A stretch of 64,000 nt of DNA from Aeromicrobium camelliae (GCF_003850045.1 NZ_RQJX01000017.1:1-64000); one strand, 5' to 3'. Counted from the stretch's first letter, positions 13,361 to 21,574 are shown. Translations and numbers: made by a program. Notes: generated from the letters alone by a model not told the origin.

Positions 13361-14527
13361 CTAGTGGTGAGCCGAGGCTGTAAGGGGCTCCGTCTCGTCG
13401 ATGTCGGACGGAGGCGGAGTGTCGGGGGCGCGGAGACCGAACGAGCCGAATCCCGCGACGTACAACAGGGCGACGAGCGCCATCCAGTTCATGAAGCCGA
13501 GCGCATTGCCCGCGATGTCGCCGACGACCACGGGCTCGTGCAACACGGCCGACGCCAGGACGAAGTAGTAGGCGACGAAGGTGGCGGCACCGAGTCCGAA
13601 GGTCACGAGCGTCCGGAGGGCGAGGTTCGCCGGCTCGGGGAGTCGCGTCGGCTTGTTGCCGAAGGCGTTGCTCCAGATGATCATCCACACCACCCAGCAC
13701 ACGCCCAGTTGAGCGGGAAACTGCTGGATCGCCCCGCCGAGCGCGCTGACGTTGTCCGGACCGAGCAACACCTTGCTCACGGCACGCATCAGCCAGAAGA
13801 GCAGGGTTCCCAGCACGATGTTCCCGGCCAGGGAGGCCAGCGCCACGCGTCCGCGACTGCCCGCCAGCCGCCATGGCCAGTTGTCCCAGAGCGATCCGGT
13901 GAGAATGATCGACACGACCAGCGCGTAGTACCACCCGAGCAGGGTGTCGAGGTCCATGAGGGCGCCGTCCGGTGCCACCGCCAGCGACAAGGTGGGCAGA
14001 CCGAGACTCACGTACAGGGCCACGGTCGGGAGCATGAGGAAGGCGATCTCGCACCATCCGACCAGCGGCTGGCGCAACCCGAGATCTGGCCACGGCCAGT
14101 GGCCCCAATTGACCGCGCTCATGACATAGGTCGAGAAGCCGAAGAGGACGAAGAGGGCGCCGACGAAGTAGCCGCTTCCGTCGTCGCGAGACGCCGCGAA
14201 GTCCGGATCCAGGTGCCCGAGCCCTGCCGCCAGCAGCCACGTGACGAGCACCCCGAAGCCCAGTGCGCTCGCGGCGATCGTCATGCCCCGCAGTGGTTGC
14301 GGCAGTCGGACGAAGCCGGAGAACTCCAGGTTGAAACCGCTCCAGACCACGAACATGAGCGCCCAGAAAAGTACGGCGTTGAAGGGCAGCGGATAGACGT
14401 TCAACGGGCTGGTCTGCGGGTCGGCAAGGAGATACCAACCCGCCACGGACGCGAGGACGACGACCAGCAGATTGAGCAGGCCGAAGGTCCACCAGGGACG
14501 GGGGCGGGGGTCGGGGTTCATGTTCAC
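13361..14527 (-). CDS. Ten-helix membrane protein with internal repeats, unrecognised
   Basis: A 388-residue membrane protein with about ten helices (near 12-33, 48-66, 81-103, 120-140, 157-178, 198-216, 229-250, 272-290, 305-328, 340-362). A tryptophan-centred helix end recurs at W62 (WSGFN), W141 (WGHWPW), W214 (WDNWPW) and W285 (WSNAF), with a period of 71-79 residues. A following RLPQP or RLPEP in repeats 1 and 4 suggests four copies of a two-helix unit. I do not recognise the family. GTG at 14527 or ATG at 14521 can start it. It is co-directional with bdhA 10 bp away, so uptake or efflux of butanediol/acetoin or a related compound is a reasonable guess only. Confidence 0.7.
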   Translation of the reverse strand: MNMNPDPRPRPWWTFGLLNLLVVVLASVAGWYLLADPQTSPLNVYPLPFNAVLFWALMFVVWSGFNLEFSGFVRLPQPLRGMTIAASALGFGVLVTWLLAAGLGHLDPDFAASRDDGSGYFVGALFVLFGFSTYVMSAVNWGHWPWPDLGLRQPLVGWCEIAFLMLPTVALYVSLGLPTLSLAVAPDGALMDLDTLLGWYYALVVSIILTGSLWDNWPWRLAGSRGRVALASLAGNIVLGTLLFWLMRAVSKVLLGPDNVSALGGAIQQFPAQLGVCWVVWMIIWSNAFGNKPTRLPEPANLALRTLVTFGLGAATFVAYYFVLASAVLHEPVVVGDIAGNALGFMNWMALVALLYVAGFGSFGLRAPDTPPPSDIDETEPLTASAHH

Positions 14528-14821: not shown

Positions 14822-14837
14822 AGTGTTCTAGATCACA
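14822..14837. promoter_or_regulatory. CRP/GlxR-like binding site
   Basis: AGTGT-TCTAGA-TCACA matches the cAMP receptor protein (GlxR type) consensus TGTGA-NNTANN-TCACA except at the first and fifth bases. It sits 43-58 bases upstream of the ligase start, fitting catabolite control of this operon. Inferred from consensus only. Confidence 0.45.
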
Positions 14838-14845
14838 GCCCGAAA

Positions 14846-14859
14846 GTGGCGTACGCCAC
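14846..14859. promoter_or_regulatory. Perfect 14-bp palindrome before the ligase gene
   Basis: GTGGCGTACGCCAC is its own reverse complement and ends 20 bases before the ATG. It overlaps the probable -10/transcription start area, so it looks like a repressor site, possibly for the PucR-type protein encoded at the end of the same operon. Confidence 0.45.
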
Positions 14860-14879: not shown

Positions 14880-16367
14880 ATGCAGCTGGGATATCTGCCT
14901 TGGGGCGGCTCCACGGAACTCCGCAACCGACGGAACGAGATCGGCCTCCGCGACGACCGCGTCGAACTCACCTATGCCGAGTTCGACGACTGGACCGCGG
15001 CCTTCGCCGAGCAGCTCAGCGAGCACGGGCTCGGCGCCGAGGACGTTCTGGCGATCATGCTGCCCAATCGGGTCGAGCTTCTCGTCGCCATGTTCGCGGC
15101 CTGGCGCCTCGGCGCGGTCGCCACCCCGGTGAACCCCACCTTCACCGACCATGAGGCCGACTACCAGATCCGGGATTCGGCGGCGAAGCTCGTCGTCACC
15201 GCGCGTCCGGTCGCCTCGATCGGGGATCGCCCGACGATCTACGTCGAGGACATGCGCACCTCGTGCCGTCGAGAGCCGACTGTTCCGCAGCCGCTGACCA
15301 GCGACTCCCTCGCACTGCTGATCTACACCAGCGGCTCCACCGGCCAACCCAAGGGCGTGATGCTCGACCACGGCAACGCCGAAGCCATGTCGGACATGAT
15401 GGCCCGGCACCTCGGCCTGACCGAACAGGACCACTGTCTGCTCGTCCTCCCGCTGTTCCACGTGAACGCGATCATGGTGAGCGTCCTGGCCCCGATGCGT
15501 TCGGGCGGTCAACTCAGCATCGTCGGTCAGTTCTCGGCCAGCAGGTTCTTCGAGCAGGTGGAACGGCTACGCCCCACCTACTTCTCGGCCGTCCCGACGA
15601 TCTACGCAGTGCTGGCGTCACTGCCCGAGGATGTCCGACCCGACACCTCGTCCCTGCGCTTCGTCATCTGCGGCGCCGCTCCCGTCGCCAAGGAGCTGCT
15701 CGAGCGATCACAGCAGCGCTACGGGTTCAGCATCATCGAGGGGTACGGGCTCACCGAGGGCACGTGTGCTTCGGCGTGCAACCCCGTCGACGGACCCCGC
15801 AAACTCGGCACCGTCGGGCCCGCACTGCCGGGTCAGACGATCGCGATCATGGGCAGCGACGGCACGCTGCTGCCACCGGGATCGACCGGGGAAGTCGTCA
15901 TCGCCGGTCCCAACGTCATGCGGGGATATCTCAACCGTCCCGAGGCCACCGCCGAGACCCTGCGAGACGGGTGGCTGCACACCGGCGACGTGGGACGACT
16001 CGACGACGACGGTTACCTCACCATCGTCGACCGGATCAAGGACATGATCATCCGCGGCGGCGAGAACATCTACCCCAAGGAGATCGAGGCCGTCCTCAGC
16101 CGACTCGACGACGTCCTCGAAGCCGCCGTCGTCGCCCGTGCCGACGACACCTACGGCGAGGTGCCCGTCGCCTACGTCAGCCTCTATCCCGATGCCCGGC
16201 TCACCGAGGACGACCTCCTCGAGCATTGCCGGCGCCACCTCACCAAGGTCAAAGTGCCCGAGCGCATCCACATCGTCGATGAACTGCCGAAGAACCCGGT
16301 CGGCAAGATCGACAAACCTACGCTGCGGCACCTCGTCCGCACCTCGACGCAGGCGCCAACCGCCTAG
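14880..16367 (+). CDS. AMP-forming acyl-CoA synthetase
   Basis: A 495-residue ANL-superfamily ligase that adenylates a carboxylic acid and transfers it to CoA. It has the phosphate loop YTSGSTGQPKG (149-159), a GYGLTEG motif, WLHTGD, the hinge YLTIVDRIKDMIIRGGENIYP and the C-terminal catalytic Lys476 in NPVGKIDK. Motifs and length fit medium- or long-chain fatty acid or aryl acid ligases; substrate choice cannot be read. ATG at 14880 has GAGGGA closely upstream. It is the first gene of a run with a DUF3556 protein, an FAD oxidoreductase and a PucR regulator. The promoter carries a CRP-like site and a palindrome. Confidence 0.88.
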   Translation: MQLGYLPWGGSTELRNRRNEIGLRDDRVELTYAEFDDWTAAFAEQLSEHGLGAEDVLAIMLPNRVELLVAMFAAWRLGAVATPVNPTFTDHEADYQIRDSAAKLVVTARPVASIGDRPTIYVEDMRTSCRREPTVPQPLTSDSLALLIYTSGSTGQPKGVMLDHGNAEAMSDMMARHLGLTEQDHCLLVLPLFHVNAIMVSVLAPMRSGGQLSIVGQFSASRFFEQVERLRPTYFSAVPTIYAVLASLPEDVRPDTSSLRFVICGAAPVAKELLERSQQRYGFSIIEGYGLTEGTCASACNPVDGPRKLGTVGPALPGQTIAIMGSDGTLLPPGSTGEVVIAGPNVMRGYLNRPEATAETLRDGWLHTGDVGRLDDDGYLTIVDRIKDMIIRGGENIYPKEIEAVLSRLDDVLEAAVVARADDTYGEVPVAYVSLYPDARLTEDDLLEHCRRHLTKVKVPERIHIVDELPKNPVGKIDKPTLRHLVRTSTQAPTA

Positions 16368-16461
16368 CTCGATCCACGCGGCAGTTCCCCCCACGATCCA
16401 CCAGGTCCAGCGCGAGCACGTGCTCGTGCAGGACGCCCTTGCCCAAGTGAAGGAGCAGACC

Positions 16462-18303
16462 ATGGGATTCACGACAGCGGACATGCCGCCGATCGATCCG
16501 GCGGACTACGAATCGATGCCGTTCATGGAACGGATGCGGATGCTGGCGACGCACTGGGTCGACTACGGCTTCGGCAGCCCGAAGACCAACCACATGCTGT
16601 ACGTCTACAAACTGCTGTTCTACGTCGTCGGCGGCACGCTGATCGTAGGACTCACGACCCCTGGCCTCGGCGGCCTCACGAACATGGGTGCCTGGTGGGG
16701 TGAGCCCATCGTGTACCAGAAGCTCATGGTCTGGACGATCCTGTTCGAGATCCTCGGACTCGCCTCGTCATCGGGTCCATTGGCCTTCAAGTTCAAGCCG
16801 CTCATCGGCGGAGTCCTGTACTGGAGCCGGCGTCACACCCTTCGCGTACCTCCCTGGCCCTCGAAGGTCCCGCTGACCCAGGGCGATCACCGCACCGTCG
16901 TCGACGTCACGCTCTACGTGGCGATTCTGGGCGTGCTCGGCTTCCTCCTCGTGACGCCCGGCGTGGAGTCCTCCGCCCTTCCCGGCAGCGACGCCGGTCT
17001 CCTCCCCGCCTGGGCTCTGCTGACCTACGTGGCGCTCATCATCGTCATGGGCCTACGCGACAAGGTCGTCTTCCTGGCGGCCCGCTCCGAGCAGTACCTC
17101 GCGGTGATCTTCTTCTTCGGAGTCCTCACTCATCACGTCGACATGATCCTGGCCGCGAAGATCGCGATGGTGACCATCTGGATGGGAGCCGGCGTCTCGA
17201 AGTTCGGCCACCACTTCACCAACGTGGTGCCGCCGATGATGAGCAACACGCCCTGGCTGACATCGCGGCGGTTCAAGCGATCGCTCTACCGTCACTACCC
17301 TGACGACCTGCGCCCTTCCAAGGTCGCCTGGGGCTTCGCCCACATCGGTGGAACGGTCGTCGAGCTGGCCCTTCCCCTCGTCCTGCTGTTCTCCACCCAT
17401 CCGGCCGTCACATGGTTGGCCATCATCGGGATGATCGTGTTCCATGTCTTCATCACGTCGACCTTCCCGCTCGCCGTACCGTTGGAGTGGAACGTCTTCT
17501 TCATCTTCGCCACGGTGTGGCTGTTCGGCGGTTTCCCGGCGTGGGACGGCTACGGCGTGGGCGACATCAGCGCGGCCTGGCTCTACGTGCCGATCCTCGC
17601 GGCGTTCCTGACCTTCCCGATCCTCGGCAACCTCCGGCCGGACCTGGTGTCGTTCCTTCCCTCGATGCGGCAGTACGCCGGAAACTGGGCGTCAGCCACG
17701 TGGGCGTTTCGAGGAGACGAGGCCGAGGCCAAGCTCAACCAGCACCTGGTGAAGTACAACCTCAATCAGGTCGACCAGCTCAGCGGGGCGTTCGGCAAGG
17801 ACATCGCCGAGATCTTCATGCAGAAGGCGATGGCTTGGCGCACGATGCACAGCCAAGGTCGTGGTTTGATGTCGTTGATGATGCGTCACCTGGACAAACT
17901 CGAGAACTACCGCATTCGCGAGGCTGAGTTCGTGTGCACGACGCTCGTGGGTTGGCAGTTCGGCGACGGGCACCTGCACAACGAGGCCACCATTGAGGCG
18001 GTTCAGCGGCGGTGCCGGTTCGAGCCCGGCGAGTGCATGGTGGTCTGGGTCGAGTCCCAGCCGATCCACAAGACGACGCAGGAGTACAAGGTGATCGACG
18101 CCGCCCTCGGAGTGGTCGAACGGGGCACGTGGCGGGTCACGGACGCCGTCAGCGAGCAACCCTGGCTCCCCAACGGGCCGATCCCGCACCAGGTCGCCTG
18201 GCGCAGGGCCGGTTACGAACCCCGAGGCATGGCCACGCCTCACGTCGACGCGACCGTGGAGCAGGACCGCAGGGACGCGCAGGTCGAGGGCGAGCTCGCG
18301 TGA
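16462..18303 (+). CDS. DUF3556-like multi-pass membrane protein
   Basis: A 613-residue membrane protein. The N-terminal IDPADYESMPFMERMRMLATHW, about nine to ten helices between residues 48 and 390 (with HHVDMILAAKIAMVTIWMGA and VSKFGHHF in the centre) and a C-terminal soluble domain of about 200 residues fit the DUF3556 family of actinobacterial transmembrane proteins (usually 576-592 residues) of unknown function. The central helix weakly recalls HTTM / gamma-carboxylase-like membrane domains. The soluble tail contains a cysteine pair (RRCRFEPGEC). ATG at 16462 has AAGGAG six bases upstream. Its stop overlaps the GTG of the next gene (GTGA), arguing that the two proteins work together. Confidence 0.75.
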   Translation: MGFTTADMPPIDPADYESMPFMERMRMLATHWVDYGFGSPKTNHMLYVYKLLFYVVGGTLIVGLTTPGLGGLTNMGAWWGEPIVYQKLMVWTILFEILGLASSSGPLAFKFKPLIGGVLYWSRRHTLRVPPWPSKVPLTQGDHRTVVDVTLYVAILGVLGFLLVTPGVESSALPGSDAGLLPAWALLTYVALIIVMGLRDKVVFLAARSEQYLAVIFFFGVLTHHVDMILAAKIAMVTIWMGAGVSKFGHHFTNVVPPMMSNTPWLTSRRFKRSLYRHYPDDLRPSKVAWGFAHIGGTVVELALPLVLLFSTHPAVTWLAIIGMIVFHVFITSTFPLAVPLEWNVFFIFATVWLFGGFPAWDGYGVGDISAAWLYVPILAAFLTFPILGNLRPDLVSFLPSMRQYAGNWASATWAFRGDEAEAKLNQHLVKYNLNQVDQLSGAFGKDIAEIFMQKAMAWRTMHSQGRGLMSLMMRHLDKLENYRIREAEFVCTTLVGWQFGDGHLHNEATIEAVQRRCRFEPGECMVVWVESQPIHKTTQEYKVIDAALGVVERGTWRVTDAVSEQPWLPNGPIPHQVAWRRAGYEPRGMATPHVDATVEQDRRDAQVEGELA

Positions 18304-19721
18304 CCAAGGCAGTGGTGGTCGGCAGCGGGCCCAACGGGCTCGCTGCCGCCCTGACCCTCGCCGCCGAAGGTGTCGAGGTCGAGGTGCTCGAGGCCGCCGA
18401 CACCATCGGCGGGGGCACGCGATCGAGTGAGCTGACCGTCCCCGGAGTGCTGCACGACGAGTGTTCCGGCTTCCACCCGTTGGCGGTCGACACCGCGTTC
18501 TCGCGCCGTTTCGACCTCGCTCGCCACGGACTTCGCTGGCGGTGGCCACAGATCCAGTACGCCCATCCGCTCGATGACGGCCGGGGCGCTGCGGCGTGGC
18601 GGTCGGTCGAGGACACCGCCGCCCAGCTGGGCTCCGACGGCCGAGGATGGCGGCAGATCTTCGGGCCACTCACCGAGCGCTTCGACGGCATCGCCGAGGA
18701 CTTCCTGCGGCCGATGCTCCACGTCCCTGCGCACCCGATCAAGCTCGCCCGATTCGGGGCCTTCTCCCTCGCACCTGCCAGCCTGCTGGCCCGTCGGTGG
18801 TCGACGGACGAGGGGCGAGCGCTCTTCGCGGGAGTCGCCGCACATGCGCTCCGCCCGTTCGGCTCCCCCGTGTCCTCGGCCATCGGCGTCGCATTGGGAA
18901 CGGCTGCCCACCGCTACGGGTGGCCCGTGGCGGAAGGCGGATCCCGCTCGATCGCGAGCGCCATGGTCTCCCTGATCGAAGAGTTCGGCGGCAAGGTGCA
19001 GACCGGGGTTTCGGTGTCGTCCCTGCAGGAGATCCTGCCCGCGGACATCGTCATGCTCGACGTCGCACCGGCGGCCGCCGCGCGCATCGTGGGCGACCGG
19101 ATGCCATCACGCATCGCTCGCGCCCTCACCCGGTATCGGCACGGCCCGGGCACGTTCAAGGTCGAGTTCGCCGTTCACGAAGGCGTGCCCTGGACCCACG
19201 AGGAGTCCCGGCACGCAGGCACGGTCCACGTCGGCGGAACGTTCGAGGAGATCGCGACGGCCGAGGCGGTCGTGAACCGAGGCCGCATGCCGGATCGCCC
19301 GTTCGTGCTCGTCGGGCAGCAGTTCCTGGCCGATCCCACCCGCACGGCCGGCGACATCGTCCCGGTCTATGCCTACGCGCACGTTCCCTCCGGATACACC
19401 GGCGACGCTACGGGCGCGATCGAGGCGCAGATCGAGCGCTTCGCTCCGGGCTTCCGGGACCGCATCGTCGCCCGGCATCTCCGCTCGGCGATCGAGATGG
19501 AGCAGCACAATCCCAACTATGTCGGCGGCGATGTCGTGACCGGCGCCAACGACGCACGGCAGCTGATCTTCCGCCCCCGCGTCACGCTCGACCCCTACAC
19601 CCTGGGCGTACCGGGGGTCTATCTCTGCTCGGCGGCGACACCGCCCGGCGCCGGAGCGCACGGGATGTGCGGCTACAACGCCGCTCAGTCCGCCCTGCGC
19701 CGCCGGCGCGGCGAGCAGTGA
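18300..19721 (+). CDS. Phytoene-dehydrogenase-like FAD oxidoreductase
   Basis: A 473-residue flavoprotein of the CrtI / amine-oxidase-like group. The N-terminal VVVGSGPNGLAAALTLAAEG is the dinucleotide-binding motif (GSGPNG at 8-13), followed by the acidic strand end EVLEAADTIGGGTRS. The C-terminal AATPPGAGAHGMCGYNAA is the second FAD contact of this group. Members act as carotenoid desaturases/isomerases or retinol saturase-like enzymes, and many are uncharacterised. There are no carotenoid genes nearby, so carotenoid biosynthesis is unlikely. It starts inside the stop of the DUF3556 gene and is followed 10 bp later by the PucR gene, so it belongs to the ligase operon. Confidence 0.82.
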   Translation: MTKAVVVGSGPNGLAAALTLAAEGVEVEVLEAADTIGGGTRSSELTVPGVLHDECSGFHPLAVDTAFSRRFDLARHGLRWRWPQIQYAHPLDDGRGAAAWRSVEDTAAQLGSDGRGWRQIFGPLTERFDGIAEDFLRPMLHVPAHPIKLARFGAFSLAPASLLARRWSTDEGRALFAGVAAHALRPFGSPVSSAIGVALGTAAHRYGWPVAEGGSRSIASAMVSLIEEFGGKVQTGVSVSSLQEILPADIVMLDVAPAAAARIVGDRMPSRIARALTRYRHGPGTFKVEFAVHEGVPWTHEESRHAGTVHVGGTFEEIATAEAVVNRGRMPDRPFVLVGQQFLADPTRTAGDIVPVYAYAHVPSGYTGDATGAIEAQIERFAPGFRDRIVARHLRSAIEMEQHNPNYVGGDVVTGANDARQLIFRPRVTLDPYTLGVPGVYLCSAATPPGAGAHGMCGYNAAQSALRRRRGEQ

Positions 19722-19731
19722 GCCCGCCGCC

Positions 19732-21021
19732 ATGAACGAGCAGGTTCCTCGTCGCCGCACCGTCGCACCCGGTTCTCCCGAGGCCGCAACGATCACCCGC
19801 CTCACCGCCCTCGTCGCCGAGCGACTGCAGCGACGCCACGACGAGATCAACGCCAGCATGAACGACGCGATCGAGCACTCGATCGCCGATCTCGACGACC
19901 CGGAACTGCGCGACATGCTGCACGCGAGTGTCGACGGCAACATCGCCACGATCCTCCATATGCTCCACAACGACATCCCCGTCGACCACGCTCAGCCGGC
20001 CACCGCCGCCATCGAGTACGCCGTGCGTTTGGCCCAGCGCAAGGTCCCCGCCACGTCGCTGCGCCGGGCGTACCACTTCGGGTCCGACGATCTTCTCGCG
20101 CAGATCTTCGAGGAGGTGCGGACGATCGAGGTCGACCCCGACACCCGCCTGCGACTCCTGCACCACCTCGCCGGCTGGCTGCACAGTTACGTGGACTGGA
20201 TCAGCCGCCTCGTGCTTGACGCCTATGAGGACGAACGGCGGCAGATGGAGGAACGCAGCGCGTCGATCGCGGCGTCGCTGGTGCGCGGTGTCCTCGATGA
20301 CGTCCCTGGCGCCCACCACGGCTTCGCCGAACGCACCGGATACCGGCTCGAACAGCAGCACGTCGCAGCCGTCATGTGGATCGCACCGTCCAACCTGGGG
20401 GTCGATCACACCGAGCGCCTGAGATCGCTCGCCGCGAACCTGGCGAAGGCGACCGGCTGCGCGGGACTGCTGTTCACCGCGGTGGATCGCAGCACGGCTT
20501 GGGTCTGGTTCGGGCGCGGCGGCCACGGCGGCGGCCTCGATCGGTCAGCCGTCGACTCGGTACTCGCCGAAGACCTCGACACCGGCATCGCCCTGGGTCG
20601 CCTCGGACACGACGTCACCGGGTTCCGCGCAAGCCACCGTCAGGCCGAGGCGGCTCGCGACGTCGCGAGCGTTGCGCGAACCGGCCGCCAGCTGACGGCG
20701 TACGGCGACCGGGCGGTCGCGGTCGTGGCCATGCTGCTCACCGACATGGATGCGCTGGCCGCCTGGGTGGCGGACGTTCTCGGCCCCCTCGCCGCGGATA
20801 CGGAACAAGCCGAGCGGCTTCGGGGAACTCTGCTGGAGTTTCTGGCCAACGGCGGCAGTTATCAAACGGCGGCCCATCACCTACTCCTGCACCGCAACAC
20901 GGTGAAGTACCGGATCGAGCGCGCGGCCGCCTTGCGCGGACGGCCGCTCGACCAGGACCGTCTCGATCTTGAACTAGCGCTCGAGGTGGTCCGACTCCTC
21001 GGCGCCGCCGTGCTGTCCTGA
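19732..21021 (+). CDS. PucR-family transcriptional regulator
   Basis: A 429-residue regulator. Its C-terminus has the PucR-type helix-turn-helix (LEFLANGGSYQTAAHHLLLHR then NTVKYRIERAAAL, about 367-400), preceded by a GGDEF-like linking domain (about 285-350, with TGIALGRLGHDVTGFRASHRQAEAARD). The N-terminal 180 residues are helical, of the RsbRD-like sensor type (MLHASVDGNIATILHMLHND). It lacks the classical purine-catabolism PucR domain, so a purine role should not be assumed. It is the last gene of the ligase-DUF3556-oxidoreductase run, 10 bp after the oxidoreductase, and probably controls that operon in response to its substrate. Confidence 0.85.
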   Translation: MNEQVPRRRTVAPGSPEAATITRLTALVAERLQRRHDEINASMNDAIEHSIADLDDPELRDMLHASVDGNIATILHMLHNDIPVDHAQPATAAIEYAVRLAQRKVPATSLRRAYHFGSDDLLAQIFEEVRTIEVDPDTRLRLLHHLAGWLHSYVDWISRLVLDAYEDERRQMEERSASIAASLVRGVLDDVPGAHHGFAERTGYRLEQQHVAAVMWIAPSNLGVDHTERLRSLAANLAKATGCAGLLFTAVDRSTAWVWFGRGGHGGGLDRSAVDSVLAEDLDTGIALGRLGHDVTGFRASHRQAEAARDVASVARTGRQLTAYGDRAVAVVAMLLTDMDALAAWVADVLGPLAADTEQAERLRGTLLEFLANGGSYQTAAHHLLLHRNTVKYRIERAAALRGRPLDQDRLDLELALEVVRLLGAAVLS

Positions 21022-21025
21022 TCCC

Positions 21026-21574
21026 TCAGCGTGCCGAGCCCTTGACGGCTCGCTCGAGCGCGCCGAGATACCGGCCCGCCATGACGCGCTGGACGACAGG
21101 CAGTGGCTGGCTGACGAGCGTGGTGAGCCGAGAGGCCGGTCGCGAGAAGGCCCGGATGGTGCAGACCACCGTGCCATCGTCGCGCCAGTGAGCCAGGAAC
21201 GCCTCCTCCCCCGCCAACGGGTGACCCGGCAGCGTGCCGTAGGCGAAACCGCGACGCCGTTCCTCCTCCACGACGTACACCACCCGTGCTGGAGCACTGA
21301 TCGCCGCCGGCCCTACGCCAAGACGGACGACGAGCACCGTCCCCGGTCGTGCCGTCTCCGTCGACGCGAGGACGTCGGCCCCGGCACCGCGCTGCGCCTG
21401 CCAGCGCATCACCGCCGCCGTCGCCGCCGCGAAGTCGCACTCGCCGTGGCCGACGACACGCGATCGGTCTAGGTGAGCGAAACCAGCAGGGAGGGCACCG
21501 GCGGTGGCTCCCACCTGCTCATAGCTGAACGGTTCCTCGTGGAGCCGGTGCAGATCGTGTCTCGTCGCTCGCAC
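21026..21574 (-). CDS. DUF1990 family protein
   Basis: A 182-residue protein matching the DUF1990 family by the sequence FSYEQVGATAG...LPAGFAHLDRSRVVGHG, VMRWQAQRGAGA and the C-terminal ERRRGFAYGTLPGHPLAGEEAFLAHW. Function is unknown; the fold is predicted to be a lipid- or ligand-binding barrel of the START-like kind. GTG start at 21574. It is convergent with the PucR gene (4 bp apart) and 26 bp after the pterin dehydratase gene on the same strand, so the two may be co-transcribed. Confidence 0.85.
   Translation of the reverse strand: MRATRHDLHRLHEEPFSYEQVGATAGALPAGFAHLDRSRVVGHGECDFAAATAAVMRWQAQRGAGADVLASTETARPGTVLVVRLGVGPAAISAPARVVYVVEEERRRGFAYGTLPGHPLAGEEAFLAHWRDDGTVVCTIRAFSRPASRLTTLVSQPLPVVQRVMAGRYLGALERAVKGSAR

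What the first reader, a model, noticed from the sequence alone, without database searches (positions are those of the whole stretch)
14880..21021. Uncharacterised operon: acyl-CoA ligase, DUF3556 membrane protein, CrtI-like oxidoreductase, PucR regulator
Four genes on one strand have a GTGA overlap between the DUF3556 and oxidoreductase genes and a 10-bp gap to the PucR gene, so the products probably act together. No carotenoid or fatty-acid oxidation genes are nearby. The combination suggests activation of a lipid-like acid followed by membrane-associated desaturation or saturation. The promoter holds a CRP/GlxR-like box and a perfect palindrome. I know no described pathway with this set.
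Basis: partly seen in the sequence, partly recalled or inferred. Interest (0 to 1): 0.6.

Follow-up and report, generated by a model that had tools for sequence, protein, structure and literature searches.

The report
Four-gene module with carboxylase-fold membrane protein
Four neighbouring genes form a module that travels as a set through soil actinobacteria and their plasmids; its unknown membrane protein (DUF3556) turns out to be a distant, apparently flipped relative of the human vitamin K-dependent carboxylase, paired with a flavin enzyme and an acid-activating enzyme, which points to an undescribed quinone-linked reaction on lipid-like acids.

Summary
The four genes are real and placed as described. 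Of 123 DUF3556 loci with full flanks, 90 have the CrtI-like gene directly downstream. A ligase of this type is adjacent in 24; all 24 also carry CrtI and PucR, in three PucR positions, and two further loci keep all four genes in other orders. The set occurs in Aeromicrobium, Blastococcus, Kribbia, Tsukamurella and on Rhodococcus plasmids.

The new point is DUF3556. Its AlphaFold model (pLDDT 89.5) matches only human vitamin K-dependent gamma-carboxylase (GGCX): 15 entries at Z 10-13, next fold Z 4.1. Profile comparison with the HTTM/GGCX family supports kinship (E 1.7e-7; controls none) and puts an invariant lysine (K247) on GGCX's catalytic K218. GGCX's Glu-pocket Asn-His pair is Ala/Ser-Arg, so it is not a GGCX. 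Charge pattern places the lysine face in the cytoplasm, opposite to GGCX.

In mycobacteria the pair is, by synteny, Rv1431-Rv1432, beside lipid genes partly under KstR; Rv1432 is listed as required on cholesterol. Most likely: an acid is CoA-activated and oxidised by the FAD enzyme, with DUF3556 as quinone-binding membrane partner. Substrate unknown. The 'palindrome' is one of two conserved GTG-N8-CAC boxes.

The parts
14823..14836 (+). GTG-N8-CAC box 1 (CRP/GlxR-like, GTGTTCTAGATCAC)
   Evidence: sequence; conserved upstream of orthologous ligase genes
14846..14859 (+).
14880..16367 (+). adenylate-forming acyl/aryl-CoA ligase (AMP-binding + C-terminal domain; motifs YTSGSTGQPKG and NPVGKIDK)
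   Evidence: PF00501 299.8 bits, PF13193 73.7 bits; nearest solved relatives are fatty-acyl/feruloyl-CoA synthetases and FadD13
16462..18303 (+). DUF3556 membrane protein, distant member of the HTTM/GGCX superfamily
   Evidence: PF12077 906.6 bits; AlphaFold pLDDT 89.5; Foldseek top 14 hits all GGCX; VIA Z 10.2-12.8 for 15 GGCX entries; hhalign to HTTM E 1.7e-7
17083..17085 (+). codon of invariant R208, at the position of GGCX H160
   Evidence: hhalign register; R in 111 of 111 sequences
17200..17202 (+). codon of invariant K247, at the position of GGCX catalytic K218
   Evidence: hhalign register; K in 111 of 111; GGCX register
17443..17445 (+). codon of invariant H328, at the position of the HTTM-invariant FH histidine (GGCX H287)
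18300..19721 (+). CrtI/carotenoid-desaturase-fold FAD oxidoreductase, overlapping DUF3556 by GTGA
   Evidence: PF13450; model pLDDT 88.3; best fold match gamma-carotenoid desaturase 4rep, Z 32.4 over 442 residues
19732..21021 (+). PucR/CdaR-type regulator (GGDEF-like domain + PucR HTH)
   Evidence: PF17853 and PF13556; Rv1453-family model 110 bits, below cut-off

Best explanation
A mobile, self-regulated module for membrane-linked oxidation of a lipid-like carboxylic acid. (1) The ligase makes an acyl-CoA (inferred from an intact catalytic domain; substrate unknown). (2) The CrtI-fold flavoenzyme oxidises (desaturates) the activated chain (inferred from fold). (3) DUF3556, a distant GGCX/HTTM-fold membrane protein whose lysine face is turned to the cytoplasm, binds menaquinone or menaquinol at the site where GGCX holds vitamin K. 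There it couples the flavoenzyme to the quinone pool and/or uses the invariant lysine K247 for quinol deprotonation chemistry (kinship shown; quinone binding and role inferred). (4) PucR senses the acyl-CoA or its product and controls the promoter, possibly through the paired GTG-N8-CAC boxes (inferred). Shown here: conserved four-gene set, DUF3556-CrtI coupling, GGCX-like fold, conserved catalytic-lysine position, loss of the carboxylation pair, cytoplasmic charge pattern.
For: Gene set: 90 of 123 DUF3556 loci are followed directly by CrtI; ligase adjacent in 24, all with CrtI and PucR, against PucR in 31 of 99 without ligase (Fisher p 1.2e-10, relatedness not corrected). Orders vary: L-D-C-P, P(opposite)|L-D-C, P-L-D-C, and in L214 and L222 P(opposite)|D-L-C and D-L-P-C. 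Plasmid copies in Rhodococcus. Kinship: GGCX is the only clear fold match; HTTM profile E 1.7e-7, prob 93.8, against at most 0.5 for eight control comparisons; K247, H328 and K50 invariant in 111 sequences at positions where HTTM has K 29/30, H 30/30 and R 29/30. GGCX binds MK-4 hydroquinone and K218 deprotonates it (PMC12589487). Topology: K+R 6.2, 3.0 and 7.3 in loops 98-145, 199-208 and 247-286, at most 0.3 in the alternate loops. Lipid context: mycobacterial neighbours are acyltransferase, lipase, FadD-type ligase and WS/DGAT. KstR controls fadD12 and lipO (PMC1995591); Rv1432 and Rv1428c are listed as required on cholesterol (PMC6429209). A DUF3556 gene of R. opacus R7 rose (logFC 5.5) on polyethylene (PMC8556283). 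The PucR relative MabR is linked to long-chain acyl-CoA (title cited in PMC11617747).
Against: No sequence-only hit to any solved protein, and PF05090 does not recognise DUF3556. Foldseek E-values are only 2e-3 to 1.5e-2. Quinone binding is untested. Close CrtI-like relatives occur without DUF3556 (142 of 396 genomes have some homologue at E<=1e-60), and a mycobacterial DUF3556 clade lacks CrtI, so neither strictly needs the other. Ligase substrate is undetermined. The mycobacterial data concern orthologues whose adjacent ligase is only about 28% identical, and the host genome shows no KstR or HsaD above cut-off.
Confidence: 0.42

Rival explanations
1. DUF3556 is a true quinol-driven strong-base enzyme as in GGCX (menaquinol + O2 to epoxide, substrate C-H deprotonation, then carboxylation or another step), and the FAD protein reduces the quinone or epoxide, playing VKOR's part.
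For: Same fold, and the lysine that deprotonates vitamin K hydroquinone is invariant (PMC12589487). GGCX also works with a dedicated redox partner.
Against: The GGCX Glu pocket pair N159-H160 is Ala/Ser-Arg in DUF3556, so Glu carboxylation as such is unlikely. No NAD(P)H-binding domain is evident in the FAD protein. No CO2 or epoxide evidence.
Confidence: 0.17
2. DUF3556 is mainly a membrane anchor, lipid-binding or transport protein that presents a hydrophobic acid to the ligase and FAD enzyme; the HTTM fold is kept without catalysis.
For: Ten predicted helices plus a cytoplasmic C-terminal domain; in Acidimicrobiia the pair follows a branched-chain-type ABC transporter; the R. opacus paper filed its DUF3556 protein under membrane proteins/transport.
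Against: Many invariant polar residues in and near the membrane (K50, R199, D200, R208, E210, K247, H294, E301, H328, E342, W343, N344) look catalytic or cofactor-binding rather than structural.
Confidence: 0.2
3. The module acts in lipid anabolism (making a desaturated or otherwise modified membrane or storage lipid), not in catabolism.
For: Mycobacterial neighbours include acyltransferase and WS/DGAT genes; no beta-oxidation genes in the module.
Against: Patchy distribution (21 of 49 Aeromicrobium genomes), copies on Rhodococcus plasmids from oil or chlorophenol soils, and a linked regulator look like an accessory catabolic trait.
Confidence: 0.16

Closest known systems
Vitamin K-dependent gamma-carboxylase (GGCX) and the HTTM family (PF05090)
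   Same: Fold of residues 77-578 (Z up to 12.8); invariant K247 = K218; invariant H328 and K50 at HTTM-conserved H and R; profile E 1.7e-7
   Different: Below PF05090 recognition; N159-H160 replaced by Ala/Ser-Arg; one extra predicted helix before the lysine, so the active face is predicted cytoplasmic rather than lumenal; paired with CrtI-fold FAD protein and CoA ligase instead of VKOR
M. tuberculosis Rv1431-Rv1432 locus
   Same: DUF3556 immediately followed by the same FAD oxidoreductase (43-57% identity to the window proteins), a PucR gene nearby (Rv1429) and lipid genes, in loci syntenic with whiA ... gap-pgk-tpi (gene numbers by synteny, from own knowledge)
   Different: The adjacent ligase is a distant FadD (28%) on the other strand; acyltransferase, lipase and WS/DGAT genes added
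Carotenoid desaturases (CrtI, 4rep gamma-carotenoid desaturase)
   Same: Whole fold, Z 32.4 over 442 residues to 4rep; FAD dinucleotide motif GSGPNG
   Different: 15% identity; TIGR02734 54.9 bits against cut-off 238; no carotenoid genes nearby
MabR/PucR regulators of Actinobacteria
   Same: GGDEF-like + PucR HTH domains; Rv1429 is listed as having the MabR architecture (PMC11617747)
   Different: N-terminal domain not tested for the globin fold; Rv1453-family model below cut-off

Membership tests
HTTM/GGCX superfamily | GGCX-type fold | tested here: met
   15 GGCX entries Z 10.2-12.8, next fold 4.1; Foldseek ranks 1-14 all GGCX
HTTM/GGCX superfamily | profile similarity to HTTM proteins | tested here: met
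   hhalign prob 93.8, E 1.7e-7, 222 columns; eight control comparisons at most 0.5. Smaller alignments: prob 46 and 0.3
HTTM/GGCX superfamily | catalytic lysine position and FH histidine | tested here: met
   K247 and H328 in 111 of 111 sequences, aligned by hhalign
Pfam HTTM (PF05090) proper | score above the PF05090 cut-off | tested here: not met
   no PF05090 hit in the protein nor in the genome
gamma-glutamyl carboxylase (GGCX) proper | Glu-pocket pair N159-H160 | tested here: not met
   A/S207 and R208 in all 111 sequences
gamma-glutamyl carboxylase (GGCX) proper | lumen/outside-facing active site | tested here: inconclusive
   positive-inside pattern predicts a cytoplasmic face; not measured
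gamma-glutamyl carboxylase (GGCX) proper | vitamin K hydroquinone binding and epoxidation | not testable with these tools
   needs purified protein
CrtI carotenoid desaturase | fold and FAD motif | tested here: met
CrtI carotenoid desaturase | family model cut-off (TIGR02734 / CrtO NF045689) | tested here: not met
   54.9 of 238 bits; 72.5 of 1000 bits
acyl-CoA ligase (AMP-binding superfamily) | AMP-binding and C-terminal domains with catalytic motifs | tested here: met
   motifs read from the translation
[quoted passage not shown]
   445 of 476 bits
PucR/CdaR regulators | GGDEF-like domain + HTH_30 | tested here: met

The most novel reading that the evidence does not exclude
A cytoplasm-facing bacterial counterpart of vitamin K-dependent carboxylase chemistry: DUF3556 uses menaquinol and O2 to generate a strong base that attacks an unactivated C-H of a CoA-linked lipid acid, with a dedicated CrtI-fold flavoenzyme completing or recycling the reaction, spread by plasmids and present in mycobacteria as Rv1431-Rv1432.
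Probability: 0.14. Interest if true: 0.88.

Novelty: new variant of a known kind. Interest (0 to 1): 0.62.

Why it matters
DUF3556 has no known function, yet it has orthologues through much of Mycobacterium. Linking it to the GGCX/HTTM superfamily gives a testable biochemical hypothesis (quinone chemistry at K247) for Rv1431-Rv1432 and for a plasmid-borne module of oil-soil Rhodococcus. It also suggests that the vitamin K carboxylase fold works in both membrane orientations and with non-protein substrates.

Tried and rejected
Sequence search of DUF3556 against solved structures, alone and as a profile: nothing. hhalign with only four GGCX-like bacterial proteins: prob 0.3; with 12, prob 46; with 30 HTTM and 111 DUF3556 sequences, prob 93.8, so the sequence link needs deep alignments. 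Sterol-ring catabolism as the host's use: rejected, no KstR or HsaD above cut-off. CrtI as a marker exclusive to DUF3556: rejected, many copies stand alone. Recent horizontal gain judged by composition: no GC anomaly (66.8-67.1% around the operon). The palindrome as a separate operator: rejected in favour of a second GTG-N8-CAC box. A first gene caller mis-joined the ligase and DUF3556 genes and was replaced. DUF3556 papers: one paper with a passing mention; PF12077: none.

Full report
The observation. The window is from an Aeromicrobium-like genome (3.06 Mb, 40 contigs; nearest named locus A. phragmitis, DUF3556 85% identical). Pfam gives AMP-binding + AMP-binding_C, DUF3556 (906.6 bits), an NAD_binding_8-type FAD protein, and GGDEF_2 + HTH_30 of PucR type. 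No promoter-like or terminator-like site lies inside the stretch.

Is it a module? I collected 147 distinct DUF3556 loci and scored the neighbours. Of 123 with complete flanks, 90 have the CrtI-like gene directly downstream on the same strand, mostly overlapping or within 100 bp. The ligase is adjacent upstream in 24; all 24 also have CrtI and PucR. Without the ligase, PucR is near in 31 of 99 (Fisher p 1.2e-10; relatedness not corrected). PucR sits downstream (16), upstream divergent (6) or upstream in line (2), and in L214 and L222 the order is PucR(divergent)|DUF3556-ligase-CrtI and DUF3556-ligase-PucR-CrtI. Keeping the set while shuffling the order is strong evidence of joint function. Carriers span Aeromicrobium, other Nocardioidaceae, Blastococcus, Kribbia, M. 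talmoniae, Tsukamurella and large Rhodococcus plasmids. Within Aeromicrobium only 21 of 49 genomes have any DUF3556, so it is an accessory trait. A DUF3556 tree puts most ligase-type loci in one clade and M. talmoniae's in the mycobacterial one.

What DUF3556 is. From 35 sequences (A1) AlphaFold gives pLDDT 89.5 and pTM 0.89. Foldseek against the PDB: ranks 1-14 are all GGCX (E 2e-3 to 1.5e-2, probability 0.99-1.00), rank 15 has probability 0.13. VIA-align: 15 GGCX entries at Z 10.2-12.8 (354 residues aligned in the best), then Z 4.1. Independently, hhalign of 111 DUF3556 against 30 HTTM proteins, including bacterial GGCX-like ones, gives prob 93.8 and E 1.7e-7 over 222 columns, against at most 0.5 for eight control comparisons. 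Actinobacterial GGCX-like proteins align to human GGCX by phmmer (E 5e-40) and fix the numbering: N159-H160 = '(Y)LNH', K218 = 'GIAK'. In that register DUF3556 W-x-GAxxSK247 lies on K218, F/L327-H328 on F286-H287, K50 on the HTTM 'FRI' arginine, R199-D200-K on L-D-K, and A/S207-R208 on N159-H160. K50, R199, D200, R208, E210, K247, H328, E342, W343 and N344 are invariant in 111 of 111. In GGCX, K218 deprotonates vitamin K hydroquinone (bound as MK-4), while N159 and H160 hold the Glu substrate (PMC12589487). DUF3556 therefore keeps the quinol-base position but not the Glu-carboxylation pair: a relative, not a GGCX.

Orientation. DUF3556 has six predicted membrane helices before the lysine; GGCX has five. 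Mean K+R is 6.2, 3.0 and 7.3 in loops 98-145, 199-208 and 247-286 and at most 0.3 in the alternate loops. The lysine face and the C-terminal domain should thus be cytoplasmic, where CoA and the FAD protein are, opposite to GGCX, whose cap faces the ER lumen. This is inference from charge and helix count.

Partners. The FAD protein's model (pLDDT 88.3) is closest to gamma-carotenoid desaturase 4rep (Z 32.4, 442 residues, 15% identity) but scores far below the CrtI and CrtO models. Relatives at E<=1e-60 occur in 142 of 396 actinobacterial genomes, many without DUF3556; in one Aeromicrobium genome such a copy sits beside HMG-CoA lyase and an acyl-CoA carboxylase, a hint of branched-chain or isoprenoid acids. 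The ligase has intact catalytic motifs and falls just below the long-chain model (445 of 476 bits); its substrate cannot be named.

Physiological hints. In mycobacteria the pair lies between whiA-side genes and gap-pgk-tpi, next to acyltransferase, lipase, FadD-type ligase, WS/DGAT and often PucR. By synteny (own knowledge) these are Rv1425-Rv1432. KstR controls fadD12 and lipO (PMC1995591); Rv1428c and Rv1432 are listed as predicted to be specifically required on cholesterol (PMC6429209); Rv1432 mutants have a growth defect on hemin (PMC7058343). A DUF3556 protein of R. opacus R7 rose (logFC 5.5) on polyethylene (PMC8556283); which subtype it is I could not tell. In Acidimicrobiia the pair follows a branched-chain-type ABC transporter. 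All fit lipid-like acids; none names one. The host genome lacks KstR and HsaD above cut-off, so sterol rings are not the general substrate.

Promoter. Two GTG-N8-CAC boxes (14823, 14846) recur 21-23 bp apart in two other Aeromicrobium and two Blastococcus loci, and single boxes in several more loci. They may bind GlxR/CRP or PucR; nothing here decides.

Verdict. The main advance is the placement of DUF3556 in the HTTM/GGCX superfamily with the catalytic-lysine position kept. The mechanism (CoA activation, flavin oxidation, quinone-linked membrane partner) is my best inference at about 0.4; a GGCX-like strong-base reaction is the boldest reading not excluded. I found no paper linking DUF3556 to GGCX, but only open papers could be searched and Pfam clan data were not available.

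Noticed in passing
window 21026-21574 (-): DUF1990 protein (PF09348) converges on the PucR gene with a 4-bp gap; the same neighbour follows the operon in A. phragmitis (L031) and, on the other strand, in a Blastococcus (L034).
   Followed up: no
L023 / L128 (genome G288): Module in decay: ligase and PucR flank a 123-residue remnant of DUF3556, and the CrtI gene is gone from the site.
   Followed up: partly
L111-L117, L129: A separate mycobacterial DUF3556 clade without CrtI; in L115, L116 and L129 next to a DoxX-like protein, thiolase and enoyl-CoA hydratase genes.
   Followed up: partly
L161 8892-13250: In an Aeromicrobium lacking DUF3556 a 59% identical CrtI-like gene sits beside HMG-CoA lyase and a biotin-dependent acyl-CoA carboxylase.
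   Followed up: partly
L040-L064: In Acidimicrobiia DUF3556-CrtI directly follows a branched-chain-type ABC transporter (binding protein, fused permease-ATPase, ATPase).
   Followed up: partly
L131-L134: Actinobacterial proteins with clear GGCX similarity (phmmer E 5e-40 to human GGCX for L132), keeping the Asn-His pair and the catalytic lysine.
   Followed up: no
window 13361-14527 (-): 388-aa membrane protein with no Pfam or NCBIfam match, divergent from the operon; not conserved at that place in relatives.
   Followed up: no
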